The notes under the pieces were generated by a model, which searched no databases, was not told the DNA's origin, and worked only from the letters and a program-made list of their open reading frames with translations. A stretch of 64,000 nt of DNA, taken from the NCBI RefSeq assembly GCF_025822765.1, contig NZ_JACKUK010000017.1, positions 1-64,000 of the forward strand, given 5' to 3'. Shown here one piece after another: positions 28,886 through 41,915 of the stretch. Each line of letters opens with the position of its first letter. Positions within the stretch are counted from its first letter, which is position 1. Position numbers and translations under genes: made by a program. The stretch is from Mycobacterium barrassiae (GTDB lineage Bacteria; Actinomycetota; Actinomycetes; Mycobacteriales; Mycobacteriaceae).

Positions 28886-30670
28886 CTATCTGGGAGCGAC
28901 GAACCCGACCGGTCCCGGCGAGATGCACACCGACAACGCCGCGGTGTTGGCCCGGACGTCGATCGCGTCGCCGGCGCCTGGGAGCCGGACGAAGACCCGG
29001 TTCAGGCCTGGCCGCACCGGCACCTTCACCTCGACCCCCTCCGTAAGCGACATCGTCAGCGATCCATCGCTGTTGGCCAGGTAGTTGATCTCCGCGGTCC
29101 AATCGGCGGGCAGCAGCGGGCCGTCCAACGGCATCCGCACCGGGAAGTCCGGTTGCACCAGGTAGCCGCATTGCGGCTCGGGGCCGTCGACGATGCTGCG
29201 GACCCAGGTGACCTTCGCATCCACCAATCGACCGGAACTGTCCAGCATGCGCAAGTCCGTTGTGGCCGAGGCGAACTCGGGCCGGTGGCGCAGCAGGGCG
29301 AACATGTGGCTGGCCCGGTTTTCGGGTCCGACCACGCGCTGCAACACCAGCGGGTCGACCTCCTGGTCGAGCATCGCAGCGCTGGATTCCAACGACGCGG
29401 CGGCCAGTCCCGCTACGGCATTCTGCAGGTAGGGCTGGGCCGGGTTGTCCCGCCAGCTCGTCAGGAACGTCATCGTCGAGTACAAGCTGCTCGCCATGAA
29501 TGCGGTTGTCGCGACGACGATTACGGCCGTCCTGGCGCGTGATGCGTCAAGCCACTCCGCACCCTCGCGGTTGGGTGCGCACAGACCGACGGCCGCCAGC
29601 AGTGCCAGCACGATCACGAGATCGGGCAGGTACCGCAGGGTCTGCGCCAACTCGAGGGCGGTGTACTGCGACGACCGCATCAGGTAGATCGGTATCTGGC
29701 ATGCCACCGCGTAGCCGACCGCGACGAGCCACACCGGGCCGATGCGCCGCTTGCGCGCAACCGTCACCGCCACCACGACCGCCAGGGCCACCCAGCCCAG
29801 AACCATCACGGTCAGCGGCGGTGTACCCCAAGGCGACGCCGGCGCCCAGCGTTGCCAATCCCACGGCCCGCCATCGAGTCCTGGCACGATGCCGTGCGTC
29901 ACCGAGCGACTCAACAGATCCCAGGTCATCGACCAGTCGAGGGTCCACCGTTTCTGGTCGACGACGGCGAGATAGACGGCGATCCACGCCGCGGTGACCG
30001 CGAGGGCCGAGACCCACAGTCGAATCCCGCGACGCCACACCGTCGTCAGTGATCCGGTGCCCGTGACGTGCGCGAGCAGAGCGACGATCGCGAACGCGAC
30101 AAAGGGGATGACGGCCGCCTTCTCGAAGAACAACAGACCGCCGAAATAGACCAGCAGACCCGACACGGCATAGCGTTGATTTCCGGTGCGCACCAACAGA
30201 ACAGCGTCCCCGCACACCCAGGCCAGCGCCGCCAGCATCGGCAGCGAGTTCAACGCGGCAGCCCACCAGGCGAAGCCGGGTACGGCCAACGGGGTGAACA
30301 GCGCGAAGGTCAGCGGAATGAGCAACACGGGCCGCCAGCCCAGGATCACGTGCAGCGCCCGCAGCAGCGCCAGCGACGCCAGCAGCTGCAGCACGATCAG
30401 GCTGATCGCCGGTAGGAACCACTGCAGCGGGGCGACCCGGGTGATGGCGCCGGCGACCAGGAACGCGCCGGGCATGACGTGACCGTCGTGGTCGTCGAAC
30501 AGATAGTTCACGGACAGCAGGTTCTGGGTGCCCGCACGGCCGATGAGGATCAGGTCGTCCCAGTAGAAATAGCCGTTGAAGGCGAGCACCGCGCGGATGA
30601 CCAGTTGCACCGCGATCAGCGCGGCTGCGGTGCGGGCGACCCAGTTGGCTTGGCTCGTAGTGCTTTTCAC
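28886..30670 (-). CDS. Polytopic membrane protein, possible glycosyltransferase-like (Rv3635-like)
   Basis: The 594-residue protein has about ten to eleven membrane segments followed by a roughly 150-residue extracytoplasmic C-terminal domain. The early loop FNGYFYWDDLILIGRAG has the acidic residues that GT-C-type transferases carry in their first loop. It corresponds to Rv3635, next to galE1 in M. tuberculosis. I chose the GTG at 30670, which overlaps the galE stop by four bases (GTGA), so it is translationally coupled to galE. A sugar-transfer role is inferred from the loop and the neighbour. Confidence 0.78.
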   Translation of the reverse strand: MKSTTSQANWVARTAAALIAVQLVIRAVLAFNGYFYWDDLILIGRAGTQNLLSVNYLFDDHDGHVMPGAFLVAGAITRVAPLQWFLPAISLIVLQLLASLALLRALHVILGWRPVLLIPLTFALFTPLAVPGFAWWAAALNSLPMLAALAWVCGDAVLLVRTGNQRYAVSGLLVYFGGLLFFEKAAVIPFVAFAIVALLAHVTGTGSLTTVWRRGIRLWVSALAVTAAWIAVYLAVVDQKRWTLDWSMTWDLLSRSVTHGIVPGLDGGPWDWQRWAPASPWGTPPLTVMVLGWVALAVVVAVTVARKRRIGPVWLVAVGYAVACQIPIYLMRSSQYTALELAQTLRYLPDLVIVLALLAAVGLCAPNREGAEWLDASRARTAVIVVATTAFMASSLYSTMTFLTSWRDNPAQPYLQNAVAGLAAASLESSAAMLDQEVDPLVLQRVVGPENRASHMFALLRHRPEFASATTDLRMLDSSGRLVDAKVTWVRSIVDGPEPQCGYLVQPDFPVRMPLDGPLLPADWTAEINYLANSDGSLTMSLTEGVEVKVPVRPGLNRVFVRLPGAGDAIDVRANTAALSVCISPGPVGFVAPR

Positions 30671-31644
30671 GCGGGATAGTTGTCGCCGGCCCGGCTGCGC
30701 GCCTCCCACGCCGAGGCCACCATCTCGCGCAGCGAATGCCGCATCTGCCAGTCCAGGTCACGCTTGGCCAGGTCGCCCGACGCGACGATGCGGGCCGGGT
30801 CTCCCGGCCGCCTGGGTTTGATCGTCGGTTCGAAGTCGATCCCGGTGACGTCCCGGATCGCCGTCATGATCTGGCGCACCGACGTGCCGTCCCCGCTGCC
30901 GAGGTTGTACACCGGCTCGACCGGCTCGTTGGCGACGAGCCGTACCGCGGCGGCGACGTGAGCCAGCGAAAGGTCGGTGACGTGGATGTAGTCGCGCACG
31001 CATGTCCCGTCCGGTGTCGGGTAGTCGTCACCGTTGATGTGTGGCGTCTCGCCCCGGAAGAGCGCGTTGAACACCAACGGAAACAGGTTGTGCGGACTGG
31101 CGTCGAACAGTTCGTCCGAACCGGAGCCGACCACGTTGAAGTAGCGCAGGCTGGTGTGCCGCAGACCAGAGGCGCGGCCGGCGTCGCGCAGCAGCCACTC
31201 GCCGATCAGTTTGGTCTCACCGTAGGGCGACTCCGGTCGCGTCGGGGTGTTCTCGGTGACGATGTCGACATCCGGGGTGCCGAAGGTGGCCGCGCTGGAC
31301 GAGAACACCATCTTGTCGACGCCCGTGGCCTCCATCGCCTTGAGCAGCGTCACCATTGCCGAGACGTTCTGCTCGTAGGTGTGCAGTGGCCGCTGGACCG
31401 ACACTCCGGCGTACTTGAACCCGGCGATGTGAATGACGCCGTCGACGTGGTGGTCGCGCAGGGTCTGCGTGACGAGGTCCCCGTCCAGCAGGGTGCCGCG
31501 CACGAACGGCACCGATGCGGGGACGAACTGCTCCAGCCCCGTGGACAGGTCGTCGATGACAACCACCTGGATGTCGGCGTCCATCAGGGCGCGGACCACG
31601 TGGGAGCCGATGTAGCCAGCTCCGCCAGTCACCATCCACGTCAT
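30667..31644 (-). CDS. galE: UDP-glucose 4-epimerase
   Basis: The 325-residue short-chain dehydrogenase-type enzyme shows the NAD-binding TGGAGYIGS near the N-terminus, the catalytic Ser region FSSSAATFG and Tyr141-x3-Lys145 in SPYGETK. NLGSGDGTSVRQ and KPRRPGDPARIVAS are typical late GalE motifs. It supplies UDP-galactose for arabinogalactan synthesis. The ATG at 31644 is preferred over a GTG four codons earlier. The downstream membrane protein overlaps it by four bases. Confidence 0.93.
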   Translation of the reverse strand: MTWMVTGGAGYIGSHVVRALMDADIQVVVIDDLSTGLEQFVPASVPFVRGTLLDGDLVTQTLRDHHVDGVIHIAGFKYAGVSVQRPLHTYEQNVSAMVTLLKAMEATGVDKMVFSSSAATFGTPDVDIVTENTPTRPESPYGETKLIGEWLLRDAGRASGLRHTSLRYFNVVGSGSDELFDASPHNLFPLVFNALFRGETPHINGDDYPTPDGTCVRDYIHVTDLSLAHVAAAVRLVANEPVEPVYNLGSGDGTSVRQIMTAIRDVTGIDFEPTIKPRRPGDPARIVASGDLAKRDLDWQMRHSLREMVASAWEARSRAGDNYPA

Positions 31645-31730
31645 CGGAGCCGCCACCGGGGTGAGTCTAGTAAGCGGCGCGCGGCTGCTCGCGGTGTCGT
31701 CCTGCCTGCGGGTACTTTCAAAGGCAAGAA

Positions 31731-31752
31731 AGATTGTGAGTACTTACTTTCT
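31731..31752. promoter_or_regulatory. Imperfect 22-bp palindrome, candidate TetR operator
   Basis: Around the centre AGTACT (31739-31744), 16 of 22 positions are symmetric; the half-site reads AGAxxGTxAGT. It lies 18 bases upstream of the amidohydrolase ATG, where a promoter would sit. The gene after the amidohydrolase is a TetR regulator, which is the natural candidate to bind it. Confidence 0.45.
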
Positions 31753-31769
31753 GTTGTAAGGTCGCCGTC

Positions 31770-33551
31770 ATGACCTACGACGTGATCGTTCGCAACGGCC
31801 TCTGGTTCGACGGGACCGGTGCCGCCCCGCAAGTCCGCACCCTGGGCATCCGCGACGGAATCGTGGCGACCGTGTCGGCCGGCCCCCTCGACGAGACGGG
31901 CTGCCCCGACGTGATCGATGCGACGGGCAAGTGGATCGTGCCCGGCTTCATCGACGTGCACACGCACTATGACGCCGAGGTGTTGCTCGATCCGGGCCTG
32001 CGCGAGTCGGTCCGTCACGGCGTGACGACGGTGCTGCTCGGCAACTGCTCGCTGTCGACGGTCTATGCCGATGCCGATGACGCCGCCGACCTTTTCAGCC
32101 GCGTGGAGGCGGTGCCGCGCAAGTTCGTCCACGGCGCCCTCGAAGCCAAGAAGACGTGGTCCGACCCCGCCGAGTACGTGCGTGCACTCGACGAACTTCC
32201 GCTGGGTCCGAACATCGGCTCGATGCTCGGCCATTCCGACCTTCGCACCAGCGTCCTCGGGCTGGACCGCGCGACGACCGAGGGTGTCAAGCCGACACCT
32301 GCCGAGCTGGACCGGATGGCGGCGATGCTCGAGAAGGCGTTGGACGCAGGGCTTCTCGGGTTGTCGGGCATGGATGCACCGATCGACAAACTCGACGGCG
32401 ATCGTTATCGGTCACGGGCACTGCCGTCGACGTTCGCCACCTGGCGTGAGCGACGCAAGCTGATCTCGGTGCTGCGCAAGCACCGTCGCATTCTGCAGAG
32501 TGCGCCGAACACCGTGAAACCGATGTCGGCGCTGATGTTCTTCCTCACCAGCAGCGGGTGGTTCGGTCGTCGTCCCGGTGTCCGGGTGAGCCTGCTGGTG
32601 TCGGCGGACGCCAAGTCCGCGACGGGAGCGGTGCACGTACTGGGGCCCGGCGTCAGGCTTCTCAACAAAGTGCTGGACTCGTTCGTGCGTTTTCAGCATC
32701 TGCCCGTTCCGTTCGAGCTGTACTCCGACGGTATCGACCTGCCGGTGTTCGAGGAGTTCGGTGCCGGCACCGCCGCACTGCATCTGCGTGACCAGATCGA
32801 GCGCAACGAACTACTGGCCGACACCGAGTACCGGCGCCGGTTCCGCCGCTCCTTCGACAAGAAGAAGCTCGGACCGTCGTTGTGGCACCGGGACTTCCAT
32901 GACGCGACCATCGTCGAGTGCCCGGACAAGTCGCTGATCGGGAAGAGCTTCGGTCAGATCGCCGACGAGCGCGGGTTGCATCCGCTCGACGCATTCCTCG
33001 ACGTACTCGTCGAGAACGGTGAGCGCAACGTGCGGTGGACGACGATCGTGGCGAACCACCGGCCCAAGTATCTCGACCGGCTCGCCGCCGACCCGTCCGT
33101 CCACATGGGGTTCTCCGACGCCGGTGCCCACCTGCGCAACATGGCGTTCTACAACTTTCCGTTGCGTCTGCTCAAGCGCGTTCGTGACGCCGAGCTGGCG
33201 GGTCGCCCGTTCCTGTCGGTGCAGCGGGCGGTGTACCGGCTCAGCGCCGAGGTGGCCGAATGGTTCGGCCTTGCCGCAGGCACTCTCCGTGAGGGTGAAC
33301 GTGCCGACTTCGTCGTCATCGATCCCGAACACCTCGACGACTCGGTGAACGGCTACCACGAAGAGAGCGTGCCGTTCTACGGCGGGCTGAGCCGCATGGT
33401 CAATCGCAACGATTCCACCGTGGTGGCGACCGCCGTCGGCGGCAAGGTCGTGTTCCGCGAGGGTGAGTTCTGCGAGGGTTACGGCATGACGGTGAAGTCC
33501 GGCCACTTCCTGCGAGCGGGCACCACTTCGCACGCGAAAGCGCTTGCCTGA
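31770..33551 (+). CDS. Amidohydrolase family protein, N-acyl-D-amino-acid deacylase type
   Basis: The 593-residue metal-dependent hydrolase opens YDVIVRNGLWFDGTG and has the metal motif GFIDVHTHYDAE, followed by the NCSLST segment and a late GFSDAGAHLRNM with the active-site Asp. The YDVxIRNGxxxDGTG start and HTHYD motif are those of D-aminoacylase/amidohydrolase 3 proteins. The physiological substrate is unknown. One base separates it from the following TetR gene. A palindrome in its promoter suggests regulation by that protein. Confidence 0.88.
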   Translation: MTYDVIVRNGLWFDGTGAAPQVRTLGIRDGIVATVSAGPLDETGCPDVIDATGKWIVPGFIDVHTHYDAEVLLDPGLRESVRHGVTTVLLGNCSLSTVYADADDAADLFSRVEAVPRKFVHGALEAKKTWSDPAEYVRALDELPLGPNIGSMLGHSDLRTSVLGLDRATTEGVKPTPAELDRMAAMLEKALDAGLLGLSGMDAPIDKLDGDRYRSRALPSTFATWRERRKLISVLRKHRRILQSAPNTVKPMSALMFFLTSSGWFGRRPGVRVSLLVSADAKSATGAVHVLGPGVRLLNKVLDSFVRFQHLPVPFELYSDGIDLPVFEEFGAGTAALHLRDQIERNELLADTEYRRRFRRSFDKKKLGPSLWHRDFHDATIVECPDKSLIGKSFGQIADERGLHPLDAFLDVLVENGERNVRWTTIVANHRPKYLDRLAADPSVHMGFSDAGAHLRNMAFYNFPLRLLKRVRDAELAGRPFLSVQRAVYRLSAEVAEWFGLAAGTLREGERADFVVIDPEHLDDSVNGYHEESVPFYGGLSRMVNRNDSTVVATAVGGKVVFREGEFCEGYGMTVKSGHFLRAGTTSHAKALA

Positions 33552-33552
33552 C

Positions 33553-34155
33553 ATGGCACGAACTCAGCAGCAACGTCGGGAGGAAACGATCGCGCGGCTG
33601 CTCGACGCCAGCATCGACACCATTGTCGATGTCGGATACGCACGGGCGTCGGCGGCGATGATCGCCAAGCGCGCCAACGTATCCGACGGTGCGCTGTTCC
33701 GCCACTTCCCGACCATGGGTGACTTCATGGCCGCCACCGCCCAGGAGGTGATGCGACGGCAACTGGGACTGTTCTCGAAGCGGGTGGCCGAGATACCGGC
33801 CAACGAGCCGGCGTTGGAGGCCGCGCTCACCATCCTGCGCGACGTCACCGGTAACGCCACCAACACCGTCATGTATGAGCTGATGGTCGCGGCGCGCACG
33901 GACGAAAAGCTCAGGGGCACTCTGAGAGAGGTGCTCGCCGAATATGCGGCGAACATCTACGAGGCCGCAAGGGCGCTTCCCGGCGCCGAGCAGATTCCGG
34001 ACGAGACCTTCATCGCATTGGTGGCGATACTCACCAACGCCTTCGACGGCGCGGCGATCGTGCGTGCGGTGCTGCCGCAGCCTGAACTCGAGGACAAGCG
34101 AATCGAGCTGCTGGCGGCGCTGCTCAGCGGGACGTCACCGACGCTACGGGCGTAA
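33553..34155 (+). CDS. TetR family transcription regulator
   Basis: The 200-residue protein has a TetR N-terminal helix-turn-helix (IVDVGYARASAAMIAKRANVSDGALFRHFPTMGDF) and a helical ligand-binding domain. It lies one base after the amidohydrolase stop, so the two are co-transcribed, and it probably regulates that gene through the palindrome at 31731-31752. I took the ATG at 33553; a TTG three codons earlier is possible. Its last 12 bases overlap the 3' end of the convergent membrane gene. Confidence 0.9.
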   Translation: MARTQQQRREETIARLLDASIDTIVDVGYARASAAMIAKRANVSDGALFRHFPTMGDFMAATAQEVMRRQLGLFSKRVAEIPANEPALEAALTILRDVTGNATNTVMYELMVAARTDEKLRGTLREVLAEYAANIYEAARALPGAEQIPDETFIALVAILTNAFDGAAIVRAVLPQPELEDKRIELLAALLSGTSPTLRA

Positions 34156-35397
34156 CCCATCTGAAGCCCTAGCGAGCGCGGCGAGGTGCACCGCGATCCC
34201 CACCAGTGGCCCGCATGTCAGCGCGACCACGGTGCGCGTCTCGAGGCTCATCGGCAGGAGGAGAAGCGCCGCTGCCGCGACGGTCGCCGAGACCCAGCCC
34301 AGCGAGTACGCCCGGTGCAGTGCCGCCGCCACCGTCGCGGCGCCGGTCAGGGTCAGCAGTGCGATGACGATTGCCGCTGCGGTCAACCACGCCAACAGTG
34401 ACCCGGTGGCGACGTAGTCGGCACCGAATGCGCTGCGGAGCAACCACGGTCCGAAGATTCCTGCGGCCAGCACGCCGAGCAGCCCGACCGCCAACACCAC
34501 TGCGGTAGGTGTGATGAGCGCCCGCAGCCGGCGCGTGCGCTGGTCGACGAAATAGGCGATCAGGTTGCCCTGCATCGCGGTGAGCGGTACCAGCAGCGGG
34601 GCGCGCGTAAGCGTCACGGCCAGAATGACGACCCCACCCGTCGCACCCAGATCACCGGATGTCGCCTTGAGTAACACCGGGAAGCCCATCACCAGGACAG
34701 CGCTGGCGCCTGCTGCGGCGATCGAGTGCGCCGTCCCGCGCAGGAACGCGGCCGTGCCGCCGGGTGTCATCAGGTTCGCCGCGGTTCTGGTGGCCGGGGA
34801 GACGATCAACATGATCAGCCAGGCGATCGAGCCCGCCACCGTCGCCCACAGGTATCCGATCAACCCCCAACCCACCAAAAACGTTGTCGTGGCCACGATC
34901 ACCCGCAGCACAGCGTCGGTCACCATCAGCGAGCCGTACGCCGTCCACCGGTTCAGCCCCGCGAGCACGCCCATCAGCGTGGTGTGAAGGCAGAAGCCCG
35001 CGAGGCCGACGGCCAGCAGCGCAACCGACGGCCACCGCTCGTCGGCGAACACATATCCCGACCACAGCGGTGAGCTGCCCGCGATCACGACCGCAGCGGC
35101 GACTCCGACGAGCGCGGCCACCCGCATGGGATGGGCCTGCGGGCCGGTGACGACCTCGCTGTAGTCGGCCGAGCGCACCTCACGCGTCGTCTCCTGCAAC
35201 AGACCGAACGCGGCACCGGTGGCGAGGCCGAACGCCCCCCAGAAGACACCGAATGCCGCGAACCCGGCCGGTTCGAGGTCGCGCGCGGCGAGGTAGAGCA
35301 CGGCGTAGCCGCACAGCGCGGTCAGCGCGGTGGCGGCGCCGACCCGGGCAACGCTCGCTCGCGCGGCGGGACCGGCCGGGGTGCCTGCGTCTGTCAC
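34144..35397 (-). CDS. Flippase-like polytopic membrane protein (possibly Rv3630-like)
   Basis: The 417-residue protein has about twelve to fourteen hydrophobic helices and almost no loops, resembling polysaccharide/lipid flippases of the MOP superfamily (Wzx-like). It is the third gene of the NRPS operon: the GTG at 35397 overlaps the aminopeptidase stop (GTGA). It may export the product of the Pls-type synthetase or a lipid-linked intermediate; that is inference. It could be homologous to Rv3630 of M. tuberculosis, judged from position and size. Confidence 0.75.
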   Translation of the reverse strand: MTDAGTPAGPAARASVARVGAATALTALCGYAVLYLAARDLEPAGFAAFGVFWGAFGLATGAAFGLLQETTREVRSADYSEVVTGPQAHPMRVAALVGVAAAVVIAGSSPLWSGYVFADERWPSVALLAVGLAGFCLHTTLMGVLAGLNRWTAYGSLMVTDAVLRVIVATTTFLVGWGLIGYLWATVAGSIAWLIMLIVSPATRTAANLMTPGGTAAFLRGTAHSIAAAGASAVLVMGFPVLLKATSGDLGATGGVVILAVTLTRAPLLVPLTAMQGNLIAYFVDQRTRRLRALITPTAVVLAVGLLGVLAAGIFGPWLLRSAFGADYVATGSLLAWLTAAAIVIALLTLTGAATVAAALHRAYSLGWVSATVAAAALLLLPMSLETRTVVALTCGPLVGIAVHLAALARASDGLRP

Positions 35398-36731
35398 GAC
35401 GAGACATCCAGGGCGGGTAGCTCGGGGGAGTAGAGCCACGCTGCCCACAGCGGCCTCAGGGAGTCGTTGGTGTAGTTCGACGCCAGCCCGGTGAAGTCGT
35501 CGGTGACCACGGTGCTGTGCCGGTGTCGTGCCGTCCAATCACGAAGCAGGGCAAAGAAGTTGTCGTCACCGAGGCGCCGCCGCAGCACGTGCAGGGTGAG
35601 CGCACCGCGCTTGTACACGCGGTCGTCGAACATGTCGCGCGCGCCCGGGTCCGCCAGGATGAGGTTCTGCGGCGAATCCGCCAGTCGCTGGTAGTAGTGC
35701 TGCGCCCATTCGTCGGCGCTGCGACCGCCCGAGTGCTCCGACCACAACCACTCGGCGTAGCAGGCGAAGCCCTCGTGCAGCCAGATGTGGCGCCAACGCT
35801 GGGCGGTCACCGAATTGCCGAACCACTGGTGTGCGAGTTCATGGGCGATCAATCGCTCGGCGCTGCCATTGCCGTCGCAGTGATTCGCCCCGAAAATCGA
35901 GATACCTTGCGCCTCAAGCGGTATCTCCAAGTCGTCGTCGGTGACCACGACGGTGTAGCCGGTCGCCAGGGGATAGGGTCCGAACAACTTGACGAACAGC
36001 TTCATCATCTTCGGCTGATCGGCGAAGTCACGATCGAAATTGTGCCGCAACCGATCCGGCAGGACCGCGTGCATCTGGACGCCGTTTTTCGCCATACGGT
36101 GACGGTTGTACATCCCGATCTGCAGCGTCACCAGATAGGTCGACGTAGGCTCAGCCTGTTCGTATGTCCAGGTCGTCATGCCCGCCCGCGCGCGCCGCGA
36201 CACCAGCTCACCGTTGGCCAGTGCGTAGTACGGGCTCTCGGTGCTGATGCGGATGGCGAAGATCGCCTTTGCGCTGGGGTGGTCGTCGCAGGGGAACCAC
36301 GAGGCCGCACCGTTGGGCTGCCCAGCCACCAGGACGCCCTCGGTCAGTTCTTCGAAACCGACCTCCCCCCAAAGGGAGTGGATCGGCTTGGGAGTGCCGC
36401 CATACCGCACGACGATCGACATCGCCGCGCCGGCGGGCAGGGCCTCTGACAGGCCGATGTGCAGCTTGTTCTGCGACGACCTGAACCGCTCCGGCCGTCG
36501 GCCATTGACGGTCACCTTCGTGACCGTGAACGCATGCGACAGGTCGAGGGTGAAAGTGCGCAGTGCGGCCAGCGTTACCGCGGTGATGGTGGCCGTCCCG
36601 GTGAGCCGGTTGATCGCCACCTTGTACTCGAGGTCGAGTTCGTAGCGCGACACTCGGTAGCCGAAGTTGCCGTTGGCCGGGAGGTAAGGGTCGATGACCG
36701 GTGGGTTGCCCTTCTTCTTGCTCCCGGTCAC
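35394..36731 (-). CDS. M1 family zinc aminopeptidase
   Basis: The 445-residue metallopeptidase has an N-terminal beta domain (YELDLEYKVAINRLTGTATI), a GAMEN-like strand region, and the zinc signature HELAHQWFG with the third ligand Glu 18 residues on in HEGFACYAEW. It is short for an M1 enzyme because the C-terminal helical repeat domain is missing. No signal peptide is visible. The GTG start overlaps the NRPS stop by four bases and its stop overlaps the flippase-like gene. Fixed coupling to the synthetase suggests it processes that product. Confidence 0.9.
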   Translation of the reverse strand: MTGSKKKGNPPVIDPYLPANGNFGYRVSRYELDLEYKVAINRLTGTATITAVTLAALRTFTLDLSHAFTVTKVTVNGRRPERFRSSQNKLHIGLSEALPAGAAMSIVVRYGGTPKPIHSLWGEVGFEELTEGVLVAGQPNGAASWFPCDDHPSAKAIFAIRISTESPYYALANGELVSRRARAGMTTWTYEQAEPTSTYLVTLQIGMYNRHRMAKNGVQMHAVLPDRLRHNFDRDFADQPKMMKLFVKLFGPYPLATGYTVVVTDDDLEIPLEAQGISIFGANHCDGNGSAERLIAHELAHQWFGNSVTAQRWRHIWLHEGFACYAEWLWSEHSGGRSADEWAQHYYQRLADSPQNLILADPGARDMFDDRVYKRGALTLHVLRRRLGDDNFFALLRDWTARHRHSTVVTDDFTGLASNYTNDSLRPLWAAWLYSPELPALDVSS

Positions 36732-39700
36732 GCGGCGGCGTCTTCTGCCGTCTTGGGCGTGGTGACACCGCTGTCCTTCTTGCGGAACAGATTCCACGGC
36801 GCGATCGGATTGCCCAACCAGCGCGTCGATGGTGGTACCTCGTCACCACGCATCACCAGCGAGGCCGGGCCGACCGTCGCACCCGCGCCGATCCGGGCCG
36901 CGGGCAACGCGACACAGTGCGGACCCAGAGTCGAACCCTCCTCAAGCACCACGGTGTCCATCCGCATGATGCGGTCGTGGAACAGGTGCGTCTGGACCAC
37001 ACAGCCGCGGTTGACGGTCGAGCCATCACCGAGGGTGACCAGATCGGCCTCGGGCAGCCAGTACGTCTCGCACCACACGCCGCGGCCGATGGACGCGCCG
37101 AGCGCCCGCAGCCACAGGTTCATCACCGGTGTGCCGGTCGCGGCGCGGGCGAACCACGGCGCTGCGACGGTCTCGACGAACGTGTCCGACACCTCGTTGC
37201 GCCACACGAACGCTGACCACAACGGGTGCTCGATCGCGCGGATACGGCCCACCACAAGCCATTTCGCTATCACCGCGACAGTGCCTGCGATCGCACCCGC
37301 CACCAACAGGACGACGCCGCCCGTCAGCGCCGGCCACAGCCAGCCGAAGGTCGCCGCCAGCCACTGAAGCGTCAGCAGCACGGCGACACCGATCGCGAAG
37401 GTGACGATGAGCGGAACGAGCCGGCAGGTCTCGACCAGTCCGCGCAGGATCTTCAGCCGCCCCGAGGGATGGAAAGTGCGCAGCGTGTCGGCCGCGGTCG
37501 GCTTGCGCCGCAACCGAACCGGCGGGCTACCGAGCCACGACGACCCCGCCTTCGCCTTGTGCGGTGTGGCCGACAGTACGGCGACGAGCCCGTCGTCGGG
37601 CACTTTGCGGCCCGGTTGGGTGATGCCGGAGTTACCGAGGAACGCGCGCTTGCCGATGGTCGCCTGCGCGACATGAATCCAGCCGCCTCCCAGTTCATAG
37701 GAGGCGACCATGGTGTCGTCGGCCAGGAAAGCACTGTCCTCGATGACCGTGAACTTCGGCGTCAGTAGCGCCGTCGAAATCTCAGTACCCCGGCCCACTT
37801 TCGCTCCGAGCGCGCGCAGCCACCACGGGGTCAACAGGCTGGCATACAGCGGGAAGAGGTAGTTCCGCGCGGCATCCATCAGTCGTTCGGTCGCCCATAT
37901 CTGCCAGCCGACGCGACTGCGCACGGGATGATAGCCCTCGCTCAGCCACAGCGAGAGCACCCGCACCCCGATCACCGTCAGCAGTGCGTACGTCAACACG
38001 GCGGCCACCGTCGCCACCGGGGTCCACAGCGCGGCGGGTGCGATGGCCTCCGACACCGTCTTCGCGTCACGCACGCCCCAACCGATGACGGCGAGGCCGA
38101 CGCCCAGCGCCAGCAGTGGAAGGGCACCGAGCAGCAGAGACGTCACGCCGTAGACGGCCACCCACAGCGGTGCCCGTGGCGGGCGGTGATCCGGCCACGG
38201 ATGGCGGGCCTTGCCCGACTTCACCGCGGGCGAGCCCTTCCAGTATTGGCCGTTCTTGACCTTGCCGACCACGCCGGAACCCGGGGCGACGTCCGCGTTC
38301 TTGCCGACGACCGAGCCGGGCAGCAGGGTGGTGCGGGCACCGACGGTGGCGTCGTTGCCGATGGTGATGCGACCGACGTGGAAGTTGTCTCCGTCGATCC
38401 AGTGTCCCGACAGATCGACCTCGGGCTCCACGGAACTGCGGTGGCCGAGCTTCAGCATGCCGGTCACCGGAGGAGCCGAGTGCAGGTCGACGCCCTTGCC
38501 CACCTTGTTGCCGAGCGCGCGGGCGTAGTACACCAGCCACGGCGCCCCGGCCAGGTTCTCCGCCCCACTTGCCTCCGCGAGACGTTCGGCGAACCACACC
38601 CGCAGGTGCACCGCGCCGCCACGAGGGTAGGTGCCGGGTTCCAGCCCGGACAGCAGCATCCGCGCGAAGAGCGCCGCGATGCCCATCCGGCCTAGTGGTG
38701 TGACGAACACCAGGAAGCCCGCAGCGACCCACCACCAGCCAAGCGGCCTCGCCCACGGCACGAGGTCCAGTTCGGCCGCGACATTGTTGGCAAGGGCGAG
38801 CCAGACGACCCATTGCAGCGCGGTCAGCGTGGCCAGTGGCAGCGACAGGGCCATCTGAACGGCTTGGGCGAGCCGCGGCGTCGGTTTGACCACACGTGTC
38901 TGTACCCGCGGCGGTGGTTTCAACTCGTCGAGGTAGGTGGCCAGCGATCCGAGGCGGGGATGGTCGTAGAGGTCGGCGACCGTCACCTGGGGATATCGCT
39001 GACGCAGCGCGGCCACCAGCTGCGCGGCGGACAGCGATCCGCCGCCGAGCGCGAAGAAGTCGGCTTCGGGCCCCTCGATCGGCGCGGCGAGGACGTCCCG
39101 CCACAGGCTGGCCACCCAGCCCATCGTCCCTGCAAGGTCGGAGGCGTCCTCGGCCACGGGTTCGCCGGGAGGTGGCCACGGCAGTGCGTCGCGGTCGACC
39201 TTCCCCGACGTGCGGGTGGGCAGTTCGGCCACGAGCACCAGGCGCGGGACCAGGGCTGCGGGCAGCGCTTCGGCCAGCCTCGCGCGGGCCGCGGCGAGGT
39301 CGAACGACGGGTCAGTGCTGGCGATATAGCCCACCAGCAGTGGGGTGCCGCTGGCCGTGCGGCGCACCGCCGCCGCCCCGCCGCTGACGCCCGGGAGGTT
39401 GACCAGCGCCGAGTCGACTTCGCCGAGCTCGATCCGGCGGCCGCCGACCTTGACCTGGTCGTCGGCGCGGCCCTGGAAGTAGAGGCCGTCGCTCTCCAGG
39501 CGAACCAGGTCACCGCTTCGGTAGCAGCGATCCCACCCCAACGTGGGCATCGGGGCGTACTTCTCGGCGTCCTTCTCCGGATCCAGATAGCGGGCCAACC
39601 CGACGCCGCCGATGACGAGTTCACCGACCTCGCCATACGACACCGGCACGCCGTCGCGGTCCACCACCGCCAGATCCCACCCGGGCAGCGGCAGCCCGAT

Positions 39701-40648
39701 GCTCACCGGACCCCAGGCGCGCAGCCGCGCCGCGCACGCCACGACCGTCGTCTCGGTGGGGCCGTAGGTGTTCCACACCTCGCGACCCTCGACCGCAAGA
39801 CGCTCCGCCAACTCGAGAGGGCAGGCCTCACCGCCGAAGATCAGCAGCCGCACCGACTCGAGCGCCTCGGCAGGCCACAACGCCGCGAGCGTCGGCACCG
39901 TCGACACCACCGTGATGTCCCGCGACACCAGCCACGGACCCAGATCCATACCGCTGCGCACCAGCGATCGTGGTGCGGGCACCAGGCACGCGCCGTTCCG
40001 CCACGCCAGCCACATCTCCTCACACGACGCGTCGAACGCAACGGACAGACCGGCGAGCACCCGGTCGCCGGGACCGATCGGGTTGTCCTGCAGGAACATT
40101 CGTGCTTCCGCATCGACAAACGCCGCCGCACTGCGGTGCGTGACCGCCACCCCTTTCGGGGTGCCGGTGGAACCGGAGGTGAAGATGATCCAGGCGTCGT
40201 CGCGTCCGAGGGGAGATGCCGCGCGCCACCCGCGTGAGGAGCCCTGCGCGCGGATCAGTCCGGCCTCGGTGATGATGGCGACCACCCCGGCCTCGCTGAA
40301 CACCAGGTCGGCCCGTTCGTCGGGGTCGTCCGCGTCGACGGGAACGTAGGCGGCACCCGTGGCCAGGGTCGCGAGGATCGCCACGTACAGCGCGTAGCTG
40401 CCCGACGGCATCCGGATCCCGATGCGGTCGCCGCGCCCGATGCCCCTGGCGGCCAGCCAGTCGACGCTCTCCTCGATGTCGGAGATCATCTCCGCGTAGG
40501 TCAGCTGGACCTCGCCGTCGTCGATGGCCGGCGCGTCGGGATGACGGGCCGCCGTGTCGTAGAGGATGTCGATCAGTGTGCGGGGCTCGGGTGCGTGCCG
40601 GGACCGCTCGTACTGCGCGGGTATCGCGCGTGAAAAGGCCCCAGTCAC
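36728..40648 (-). CDS. Pls/PosA-type single-module NRPS with membrane-bound tandem transferase domains
   Basis: The 1306-residue protein starts with an adenylation domain (about 25-515; FTSGSTGTPKG, NTYGPTETT, YRSGDL, GRADDQVKVGGRRIELGE, RTSGKVDRD). A carrier domain follows with phosphopantetheine Ser538 in LGGGSL. The remaining 700 residues hold three left-handed beta-helix transferase-like repeats (for example GRITIGNDATVGARTTLLPG) divided by pairs of membrane helices. This is the layout of epsilon-poly-lysine synthetase (Pls) and PosA, which make homopoly(amino acids) or isopeptides. There is no condensation or thioesterase domain. The GTG at 40648 is chosen because the A-domain lead region begins there. 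Confidence 0.9.
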   Translation of the reverse strand: MTGAFSRAIPAQYERSRHAPEPRTLIDILYDTAARHPDAPAIDDGEVQLTYAEMISDIEESVDWLAARGIGRGDRIGIRMPSGSYALYVAILATLATGAAYVPVDADDPDERADLVFSEAGVVAIITEAGLIRAQGSSRGWRAASPLGRDDAWIIFTSGSTGTPKGVAVTHRSAAAFVDAEARMFLQDNPIGPGDRVLAGLSVAFDASCEEMWLAWRNGACLVPAPRSLVRSGMDLGPWLVSRDITVVSTVPTLAALWPAEALESVRLLIFGGEACPLELAERLAVEGREVWNTYGPTETTVVACAARLRAWGPVSIGLPLPGWDLAVVDRDGVPVSYGEVGELVIGGVGLARYLDPEKDAEKYAPMPTLGWDRCYRSGDLVRLESDGLYFQGRADDQVKVGGRRIELGEVDSALVNLPGVSGGAAAVRRTASGTPLLVGYIASTDPSFDLAAARARLAEALPAALVPRLVLVAELPTRTSGKVDRDALPWPPPGEPVAEDASDLAGTMGWVASLWRDVLAAPIEGPEADFFALGGGSLSAAQLVAALRQRYPQVTVADLYDHPRLGSLATYLDELKPPPRVQTRVVKPTPRLAQAVQMALSLPLATLTALQWVVWLALANNVAAELDLVPWARPLGWWWVAAGFLVFVTPLGRMGIAALFARMLLSGLEPGTYPRGGAVHLRVWFAERLAEASGAENLAGAPWLVYYARALGNKVGKGVDLHSAPPVTGMLKLGHRSSVEPEVDLSGHWIDGDNFHVGRITIGNDATVGARTTLLPGSVVGKNADVAPGSGVVGKVKNGQYWKGSPAVKSGKARHPWPDHRPPRAPLWVAVYGVTSLLLGALPLLALGVGLAVIGWGVRDAKTVSEAIAPAALWTPVATVAAVLTYALLTVIGVRVLSLWLSEGYHPVRSRVGWQIWATERLMDAARNYLFPLYASLLTPWWLRALGAKVGRGTEISTALLTPKFTVIEDSAFLADDTMVASYELGGGWIHVAQATIGKRAFLGNSGITQPGRKVPDDGLVAVLSATPHKAKAGSSWLGSPPVRLRRKPTAADTLRTFHPSGRLKILRGLVETCRLVPLIVTFAIGVAVLLTLQWLAATFGWLWPALTGGVVLLVAGAIAGTVAVIAKWLVVGRIRAIEHPLWSAFVWRNEVSDTFVETVAAPWFARAATGTPVMNLWLRALGASIGRGVWCETYWLPEADLVTLGDGSTVNRGCVVQTHLFHDRIMRMDTVVLEEGSTLGPHCVALPAARIGAGATVGPASLVMRGDEVPPSTRWLGNPIAPWNLFRKKDSGVTTPKTAEDAAA

Positions 40649-40751: not shown

Positions 40752-40880
40752 GCGGAGGGGAGTATTCCTTCGCCGTAGCGTCGTCATCACGTCGACCTCC
40801 ATCGGACGACCGGTGCTGCGGACCGCGCGGTCGTCGCGGTGGAAGAGACCTCCGGCGTTTTGACGACCGGAGGCTTTGTG
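40752..40880 (+). promoter_or_regulatory. yybP-ykoY manganese riboswitch controlling terC
   Basis: Upstream of terC lie the hallmarks of this class: GGAGGGGAGTA (40754-40764), GTCGTCATCACG (40780-40791) and GAAGAGACCTCC (40842-40853). GGAGG pairs with CCTCC to form P1. The 3' P1 strand extended, CCTCCGG (40849-40855), can instead pair perfectly with CCGGAGG (40867-40873), which is the terC ribosome binding site. Mn2+ binding would stabilise P1 and free the site, switching translation on. The class and its Mn2+ ligand are established; this assignment is by eye. Confidence 0.85.
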
Positions 40881-41915
40881 AACGTTTCTCAACTCGAGTG
40901 GATCATCACGCTGGGCGTGACGATCGCGATCCTGGTGTTCGACGTGATCGTGATCGGGCGTCGTCCGCACGAACCGACGAAACGTGAAACCGGGACCTAC
41001 CTGACGATCTACATCACGCTCGCGGTGGCCTTCGGGGTGTGGGTGTGGTTCTTCCACGGCGCACAGTTCGGCCTCGAGTTCTTTGCGGGGTGGCTCACCG
41101 AATACAGCCTGTCGGTGGACAACCTGTTCATCTTCCTGATCATCATGGCCAGCTTCAACGTGCCGAGGAAATTCCAGCAGCAGGCGCTGCTCGTCGGCAT
41201 CATCCTGGCGTTGATCTTCCGCGGCATCTTCATCGCGCTCGGCGCGGTCGCGATCAACCAGTTCTCCTGGATCTTCTACGCATTCGGCGCCTTTTTGGTT
41301 TACACCGCCATCAACCTGGTGCGCGACACCGACCACGACGACGACGCCGACAACTTCGTGGTGCGCTTCGCGCGCAAGCACCTCAGCCTCACCGATGAGT
41401 GGCACGGCCTGAAGATGTGGATCAAGGAAAACGGCAAGCGGCTGATGACGCCGATGTTCCTCGTGATCGTCGCGCTCGGCACCACAGACCTGCTCTTCGC
41501 GCTGGACTCGATACCCGCGATCTACGGCCTGACCCGCGAGCCCTACCTGGTCTTCGCGGCGAACGTGTTCGCCCTGATGGGTCTGCGCCAGCTGTACTTC
41601 CTGCTGGGTGATCTGCTGCGCCGCCTGGTCTACCTGTCGCAGGGGCTGGCCATCATCCTCGCGTTCATCGGTGTGAAGCTGATCCTGCACGCGCTGCACG
41701 AGAACGAGCTGCCGTTCATCAACGGCGGCGAGCATGTGCCGGTGCCGGAGATCCCGACGCTGGCCAGCCTCGGCGTGATCATTGTGACGTTGCTCATAAC
41801 CACCGCGGCGAGCCTGTACAAAACGCGCGTGCACGACGTGAAAAACGGCAGGCAGACGCCTGAAAATGAGGCTGAGAAGCCCGAGGGGTCCGCAGAGCAC
41901 TTGGACTCGCACTGA
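40878..41915 (+). CDS. TerC family membrane protein, probable manganese exporter
   Basis: The 345-residue protein has about nine membrane segments with the conserved acidic residues of TerC proteins (LVFDVIVIG, YSLSVDNLFIFLII, TDLLFALDSIPAI). Members of this family export Mn2+ and are often under yybP-ykoY riboswitches, as here. I chose the GTG at 40878 with GGAGG four bases upstream. The open frame continues to 40839, but that start would lie inside the riboswitch. It diverges from the NRPS operon. Confidence 0.92.
   Translation: MNVSQLEWIITLGVTIAILVFDVIVIGRRPHEPTKRETGTYLTIYITLAVAFGVWVWFFHGAQFGLEFFAGWLTEYSLSVDNLFIFLIIMASFNVPRKFQQQALLVGIILALIFRGIFIALGAVAINQFSWIFYAFGAFLVYTAINLVRDTDHDDDADNFVVRFARKHLSLTDEWHGLKMWIKENGKRLMTPMFLVIVALGTTDLLFALDSIPAIYGLTREPYLVFAANVFALMGLRQLYFLLGDLLRRLVYLSQGLAIILAFIGVKLILHALHENELPFINGGEHVPVPEIPTLASLGVIIVTLLITTAASLYKTRVHDVKNGRQTPENEAEKPEGSAEHLDSH

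What the first reader, a model, noticed from the sequence alone, without database searches (positions are those of the whole stretch)
34144..40648. Pls/PosA-type synthetase fused by overlaps to an M1 aminopeptidase and a flippase-like protein
Three genes share GTGA overlaps: a single-module NRPS with A and T domains plus three membrane-bound LbH transferase repeats, a zinc aminopeptidase, and a polytopic exporter-like protein. Pls enzymes make poly-amino acids. Fixed coupling to a peptidase and a flippase suggests a mycobacterial system that makes, trims and exports a poly- or isopeptide, or attaches amino acids to a lipid or cell-wall carrier. I know of no described product for this gene set.
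Basis: inference. Interest (0 to 1): 0.78.

Follow-up and report, generated by a model that had tools for sequence, protein, structure and literature searches.

The report
Polylysine synthesis genes beside cell-wall flippase
Two of the three genes look like a known polylysine-making enzyme and its matching peptidase, while the third is a general mycobacterial membrane transporter that belongs with a neighbouring group of cell-wall sugar genes.

Summary
The three genes are real, intact and overlap by GTGA at both junctions. Genes 1 and 2 match the known epsilon-poly-L-lysine pair: a Pls-type synthetase (TIGR02353, 754 bits; lysine code DAESIGTVVK as in PDB 7wew) and a PldII-type M1 peptidase, so a product is described for this pair. 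It is widespread: Pls passes its cut-off in 293 of 396 genus genomes, and M1 lies downstream in 149 of 158 distinct loci.

Gene 3 is the ortholog of M. tuberculosis Rv3630, a MOP-superfamily flippase. It is not tied to Pls: it occurs in 389 of 396 genus genomes, including 30 of 30 tested Pls-lacking ones (one copy decayed). There it usually heads PpgS-DUF2304, which load GalNAc on a lipid carrier for arabinogalactan. In 30 of 158 Pls loci (Mycobacterium, Williamsia, Speluncibacter, unnamed genera) the order is Pls-M1-flippase-PpgS-DUF2304; the window's clade has lost PpgS.

So the trio is two adjoining modules rather than one fixed make-trim-export pathway. The new, testable point is the gene-order link between polylysine synthesis and arabinogalactan aminosugar decoration, with the Rv3630 family as a candidate for the unidentified lipid-sugar flippase.

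The parts
36728..40648 (-). Pls-type synthetase, 1306 aa, GTG start, stop codon included
   Evidence: TIGR02353 754.5 bits, cut-off 423.1; AMP-binding and PP-binding; 643 bits to PDB 7wew, epsilon-poly-L-lysine synthase
39383..40558 (-). Adenylation domain core, residues 31-422; 10-residue code DAESIGTVVK
   Evidence: code; same residues in the printed alignment to 7wew
38930..39118 (-). Thiolation domain, residues 511-573, GGGS at 535-538
   Evidence: PF00550, motif
36803..38860 (-). C-terminal polymerising domain: six membrane helices in three pairs with left-handed beta-helix segments
   Evidence: TIGR02353 positions 2-695; Hexapep 761-793; helix windows at 601, 643, 838, 877, 1077, 1110; three beta-helices by analogy to the PosA model (PMC10522769, passages)
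36728..36731 (-). GTGA overlap, synthetase stop / peptidase start
   Evidence: same offset in 96 of 151 loci
35394..36731 (-). PldII-type M1 peptidase, 445 aa, HELAHQW + E, PLEAQ at the place of GxMEN
   Evidence: PF01433, PF17900; motifs
35394..35397 (-). GTGA overlap, peptidase stop / flippase start
   Evidence: same offset in 44 of 50 loci
34144..35397 (-). Rv3630-type MOP-superfamily flippase, 417 aa, 11 hydrophobic windows
   Evidence: Rv3630 peptide 19 of 20; hhalign to PF01943 proteins 97.7%, E 1.8e-12, TerC control 0.2%
40839..41915 (+). TerC/Alx-type membrane protein, divergent neighbour
   Evidence: TIGR03718 371 bits; directly beside the flippase in 5 of 30 Pls-lacking genomes
30667..31656 (-). 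GalE-type epimerase, 31% identical to the epimerase of the PpgS locus L225
   Evidence: TIGR01179 321.7 bits, cut-off 262.3
28886..30709 (-). Rv3635-like protein, 607 aa (name by position and recall); also present in the PpgS locus of relatives
   Evidence: 74% identical to the gene in L225; no Pfam match

Best explanation
The trio is two modules in one apparent operon. Module 1 (Pls + M1) makes and controls epsilon-poly-L-lysine or a short version of it: the A domain activates L-lysine, the T domain carries it, and the membrane LbH domain joins lysines through side-chain amino groups and releases the chain outwards; the PldII-type peptidase cuts the polymer from its N-terminus, for self-protection and chain-length control. 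Module 2 is the Rv3630-type MOP flippase of the neighbouring locus for aminosugar decoration of arabinogalactan (flippase-PpgS-DUF2304-epimerase-Rv3635-like), where it most likely moves a polyprenyl-phosphate sugar across the membrane. The modules adjoined each other in an ancestor of mycobacteria and some relatives. The window's clade later lost PpgS and DUF2304, leaving the flippase beside Pls-M1. Shown by sequence: domains, code, overlaps, orthology, gene order, absence of PpgS. Inferred: product, peptidase role, flippase substrate, ancestral order.
For: Lysine code the same in the window, in 155 of 159 aligned loci and in 7wew. Pls and M1 same-strand in order in 149 of 158 distinct loci, matching the described pls-pldII pair. 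Flippase in 389 of 396 genus genomes and 30 of 30 Pls-lacking ones; PpgS near it in 27 of those 30. Five-gene order in 30 of 158 loci, with PpgS 8-128 bases after the flippase match in 22 of them. The window and 9 other genomes of its clade were searched whole and lack PpgS. Window-type TerC directly beside the flippase in 5 of 30 Pls-lacking genomes, as if Pls-M1 had been cut out. Profile match of the flippase to Polysacc_synt proteins.
Against: No product has been measured from a mycobacterial gene in anything I read. C. variabile and a C. glutamicum strain with its gene made no detectable epsilon-PL, S. coelicolor did. 27 of 76 Pls-bearing genomes lack PpgS yet have the flippase, as do three that lack both, so PpgS product cannot be its only substrate. 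C. glutamicum carries a GalN decoration but the one g200 genome tested, probably Corynebacterium, has no flippase match. PldII is reported at the outer face of the membrane, whereas this M1 protein has no predicted helix or signal. No transcript evidence.
Confidence: 0.6

Rival explanations
1. A functional link: lysine isopeptide and arabinogalactan aminosugars are two parts of one cationic envelope-decoration system expressed together, with the Rv3630-type protein flipping the lipid-linked component.
For: Between Mycolicibacterium septicum, Williamsia sp. 1135 and Speluncibacter there are 4-7 matching positions downstream of M1 and none upstream of Pls; conserved overlaps; RmlA/RmlC (rhamnose) genes beside Pls-M1 in Tsukamurella, a Williamsia MAG and unnamed genera.
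Against: 97 of 158 loci are Pls-M1 with neither flippase nor PpgS in reach, among them the Rhodococcus, Nocardia and Streptomyces-like loci. The one-sided pattern is reversed in other pairs: Williamsia sp. 1135 against a Williamsia MAG 7 up / 0 down, Nocardia brasiliensis against Rhodococcus UNC23 5 / 0. The modules are apart in slow growers that keep both. Losses of Pls and PpgS show no significant relation in independent pairs.
Confidence: 0.2
2. One reading: one pathway that makes, trims and exports a polymer, the flippase being the polymer's exporter.
For: Coupling of all three genes, conserved in 44 of 50 linked loci.
Against: Flippase present without Pls and Pls without flippase; Pls is described as synthesising and excreting its product itself.
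Confidence: 0.1
3. The synthetase has drifted to a new reaction: single lysines or very short chains put on a lipid or wall acceptor.
For: Presence in 28 of 31 sampled genera of the family, small genomes included, is unusual for an antibiotic; no mycobacterial polylysine is known to me.
Against: Invariant A code; 33 polar or aromatic positions of the C-terminal part are the same in at least 154 of 155 rows, Streptomyces-like loci included.
Confidence: 0.1

Closest known systems
Streptomyces pls-pldII (epsilon-poly-L-lysine synthetase and degrading enzyme II)
   Same: Domain order, 10-residue code, M1 peptidase gene directly after and coupled
   Different: About 60% (Pls) and 50% (M1) identity to Streptomyces-like loci L067-L070 (that these are pls-pldII is my inference); a flippase gene follows here
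Corynebacterium variabile pls-peptidase operon (PMC8117764, parts 1 and 2 of 4 read)
   Same: Product shown to be epsilon-PL in S. coelicolor; operon with a peptidase gene
   Different: No flippase mentioned in what I read; survey of cheese and skin isolates, no Mycobacterium named in those parts
PosA, delta-poly-L-ornithine synthetase of Acinetobacter (PMC10522769, passages)
   Same: Same family and predicted fold of the C-terminal domain
   Different: Code DMEHNGTVSK, ornithine, single-gene operon
M. tuberculosis Rv3630-Rv3631(PpgS)-Rv3632 locus (gene order partly recalled; PMC6487176 and PMC8562490, passages)
   Same: Gene 3 is the Rv3630 ortholog; an Rv3635-like gene is also near
   Different: PpgS, DUF2304 and that locus's epimerase are missing at the window; Pls-M1 lies upstream

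Membership tests
Pls/PosA cationic poly-amino acid synthetases | TIGR02353 domain over cut-off | tested here: met
   754.5 against 423.1 bits
Pls/PosA cationic poly-amino acid synthetases | Single A and T, no condensation or thioesterase domain | tested here: met
   Pfam lists AMP-binding, PP-binding and Hexapep only, at E 0.001
Pls/PosA cationic poly-amino acid synthetases | Six transmembrane helices in three pairs | tested here: met
   hydropathy only
Pls/PosA cationic poly-amino acid synthetases | Lysine code of epsilon-PL synthetases | tested here: met
   DAESIGTVVK, as in 7wew
Pls/PosA cationic poly-amino acid synthetases | Makes epsilon-poly-L-lysine | not testable with these tools
   needs expression
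PldII-type peptidases | M1 zinc site HExxH...E | tested here: met
   152 of 152 rows keep HExxH and the third E
PldII-type peptidases | Coupled to pls by start/stop overlap | tested here: met
PldII-type peptidases | Outer face of the membrane | tested here: inconclusive
   no helix or signal seen
PldII-type peptidases | Hydrolyses epsilon-PL | not testable with these tools
   needs assay
MOP-superfamily flippases | Profile similarity to known members | tested here: met
   97.7%, E 1.8e-12 to 29 PF01943 proteins, control 0.2%; alone it passes no Pfam cut-off
MOP-superfamily flippases | Flips a lipid-linked sugar | not testable with these tools
   needs assay
Rv3630 orthologs | Published Rv3630 peptide conserved; one copy in the genome | tested here: met
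   19 of 20 in the window, 20 of 20 in 54 of 85 rows; a second peptide is weaker, best 15 of 20 in any row; one copy
Arabinogalactan GalN-decoration locus | PpgS present | tested here: not met
   no PpgS ortholog in G000
Arabinogalactan GalN-decoration locus | Rv3635-like neighbour | tested here: met
   28886-30709, 74% to L225

The most novel reading that the evidence does not exclude
In mycobacteria and near relatives epsilon-oligo/polylysine is an envelope component made from the same ancestral operon that decorates arabinogalactan with a positively charged aminosugar, and the Rv3630 family is the unidentified flippase of polyprenyl-phosphate aminosugars, serving a different lipid-linked sugar where PpgS has been lost.
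Probability: 0.2. Interest if true: 0.8.

Novelty: new variant of a known kind. Interest (0 to 1): 0.5.

Why it matters
It moves polylysine synthesis from a Streptomyces antibiotic to a gene pair kept in most of the mycobacterial family (Pls over the cut-off in 227 of 251 sampled genomes), and ties it by gene order to a wall decoration whose flippase is stated to be unidentified (PMC9671496). Both points can be tested by gene removal in environmental strains.

Tried and rejected
Rejected: the fixed-trio idea.

Not supported: a trade-off between Pls and PpgS. PpgS is present in 35 of 38 Pls-lacking and 49 of 76 Pls-bearing genomes. On a flippase tree, PpgS status known in 93 of 104 rows, PpgS changes at least 6 times and Pls at least 7, but only 4 supported independent pairs exist and the sign test gives p 1; it has no power.

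Corrected while checking: I first read the PpgS loss among Pls-bearing genomes as one event from an 85-row tree. With 20 more rows it is several events, one of them in the window's 15-row clade. I also found two duplicate pairs among the 160 loci (L062 = L155, L043 = L164), hence 158 distinct.

A first flippase profile made in a script was spoiled by shadow reading frames over M1 and dropped; A1 replaced it. Two ORFs first taken for neighbour genes (29547-30761 minus, 30736-31773 plus) are shadow frames of the Rv3635-like and epimerase genes.

Led nowhere: Pfam, NCBIfam, PHROGs and PDB by sequence for the flippase; structure prediction; Pfam on the insert of about 600 bases between Pls and M1 in other genera (a GNAT in Tsukamurella, a DoxX frame on the other strand in L034, nothing in the other four inserts given).

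Rows dropped before a count: L071 (161 bits) from the code count; L104 and L040 (short) from the trees; 11 of 104 tree rows without a genome-wide PpgS status. Only the 12 commonest variants of the M1 exopeptidase motif were printed (130 of 152 rows, all with EAQ).
Full report
Observation. The window's minus strand carries three intact genes, 40648-36728, 36731-35394 and 35397-34144, joined by GTGA overlaps. Protein 1 has AMP-binding, PP-binding and Hexapep matches and TIGR02353, the Pls/PosA terminal domain, at 754.5 bits against a cut-off of 423.1. Protein 2 has Peptidase_M1 and its N-terminal domain; its nearest solved relatives are short zinc metalloproteases, 6a8z and 6iff (Deinococcus by recall). 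Protein 3 has 11 hydrophobic windows and no family match alone. All three genes are under purifying selection.

Genes 1 and 2. The best solved relative of protein 1 is 7wew, the adenylation domain of an epsilon-poly-L-lysine synthase (643 bits). The ten specificity residues, placed by the recalled PheA numbering, are DAESIGTVVK in the window and, read off the printed alignment, in 7wew. They are the same in 155 of 159 other loci; three of the other four are cut contigs that agree where present, one (L080) reads DFECLSAVTK. The sample leans towards relatives, since 80 loci came from a search with the window protein. Of 158 distinct loci, M1 is downstream of Pls on the same strand in 149, directly or, in about 15, after an insert of 0.6-4 kb; the nine without it include L119, cut by its contig end. 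In print: the C. variabile gene makes epsilon-PL of 26-35 residues in S. [quoted passage not shown] PldII is translationally coupled to pls, degrades epsilon-PL and affects chain length and tolerance (PMC9223678, passages). The zinc site is kept in 152 of 152 rows; the usual GxMEN (recalled) is replaced by P(L/I/V)EAQ in the 130 rows whose variant was printed.

Distribution. TIGR02353 passes its cut-off in 293 of 396 genomes of the genus, 227 of 251 of the family, with 28 of 31 genera matching at 1e-60, 87 of 345 of the class and 14 of 296 of the phylum. C. glutamicum, a control, also passes.

Gene 3. A profile of 30 relatives (A1) finds the gene in 389 of 396 genus genomes, 360 of 361 good ones. 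All 30 Pls-lacking genomes tried have it, one of them (G114) decayed. Of 20 Mycobacterium Pls loci, 5 lack it; in those five genomes it lies 190-225 kb away (positions). Of 17 Pls-bearing genomes outside the genus, 14 had no match, two a weak one and one (G692) a strong one. The published Rv3630 peptide LTRAPLLVPLTAMQGNLIAH (PMC2891697, passages) matches the window at 19 of 20 and 54 of 85 rows at 20 of 20; a second published peptide reaches 15 of 20 at best. With the gene order below I take the family as Rv3630 orthologs. Rv3630 was matched to MATE structures by others (PMC8562490, passages). Here, comparison of the flippase profile with 29 PF01943 proteins gave 97.7% and E 1.8e-12, with TerC as control at 0.2%.

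Neighbourhood. In slow-growing and Pls-lacking genomes the flippase gene is followed by a glycosyltransferase that passes the PpgS model (412 against 370 bits) and by DUF2304: in reach in 27 of 30 Pls-lacking genomes (26 in the short loci, one 2.7 kb off). [quoted passage not shown] Classes among 158 distinct Pls loci: Pls-M1 97, Pls-M1-flippase-PpgS-DUF2304 30, Pls-M1-flippase 19, Pls alone 9, PpgS-DUF2304 upstream of Pls-M1 2, five-gene order cut before DUF2304 1. PpgS starts 8-128 bases after the flippase match in 22 of the 30; in the other 8 a gene of 0.9-1.9 kb lies between, in the Williamsia, Speluncibacter and unnamed non-mycobacterial loci a GT2-like gene on the other strand. L099, L108, L110 and L139 show TerC, Pls, M1, flippase, PpgS, DUF2304, TetR, amidohydrolase, epimerase, Rv3635-like; the window is the same without PpgS, DUF2304 and that epimerase, with a different GalE instead. 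G000 has no PpgS. In 5 of 30 Pls-lacking genomes the window-type TerC lies directly beside the flippase (L195, L201, L207, L213, L221); most others have a DUF475 protein there.

Is the linkage more than inheritance? Between Mycolicibacterium septicum, Williamsia sp. 1135 and Speluncibacter, 4-7 positions match downstream of M1 and none upstream of Pls. Other pairs go the other way (Williamsia sp. 1135 against a Williamsia MAG 7 up / 0 down; Nocardia brasiliensis against Rhodococcus UNC23 5 / 0), so the test is suggestive only. On an 85-row flippase tree linkage to Pls needs 2 changes; on 104 rows PpgS status changes at least 6 times and Pls at least 7 among 93 rows of known status. This fits an ancestral cluster that has come apart several times, by separation in the slow-growing clade and by repeated loss of Pls or PpgS. 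It does not prove joint function. Trees were quick ones with several long branches.

Literature check. No paper in the held library has both 'poly-L-lysine synthetase' and 'arabinogalactan'. Three have Rv3630 and arabinogalactan; the passages I read in them do not tie Rv3630 to Pls. A search for NAPAA with mycobacterial names listed 12 of 656 papers, none by its title or abstract start on this linkage (listing only). Subscription papers are mostly not held.

Verdict. A known pair plus a core flippase. The gene-order link to arabinogalactan decoration is, as far as these searches show, not described, and it is testable.

Noticed in passing
L135: A contig titled Bifidobacterium breve MAG carries the mycobacterial five-gene cluster (Pls 79% identical); probably a wrong bin or label.
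   Followed up: no
L224 / L233 (genome G114, contig of 3,268,203 bases): The flippase gene is decayed while PpgS-like and DUF2304-like matches beside it remain; Pls shows only a weak remnant match (E 1.4e-8).
   Followed up: partly
L033-L035, L040-L041, L150, L062/L155: A GT2-like gene lies between flippase and PpgS, and rml genes follow in L033-L035 and L155; it may correspond to C. glutamicum Cgp_0396 of PMC9671496 (not tested).
   Followed up: partly
L034, L041, L046, L048, L150, L153: About 600 bases are inserted between Pls and M1 in several genera; in Tsukamurella (L153) it is a GNAT acetyltransferase.
   Followed up: partly
L061: A second Pls copy without an M1 gene in a genome of the family (G864).
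   Followed up: no
L026 / L071 (genome G1064): The best TIGR02353 match of the class search (886 bits) has only 161 bits to the window's Pls: a clearly different poly-amino acid synthetase.
   Followed up: no
window 33544-34155: A TetR gene on the plus strand overlaps the 3' end of the flippase gene by 12 bases; in L099, L108, L110 and L139 it lies beyond DUF2304.
   Followed up: yes
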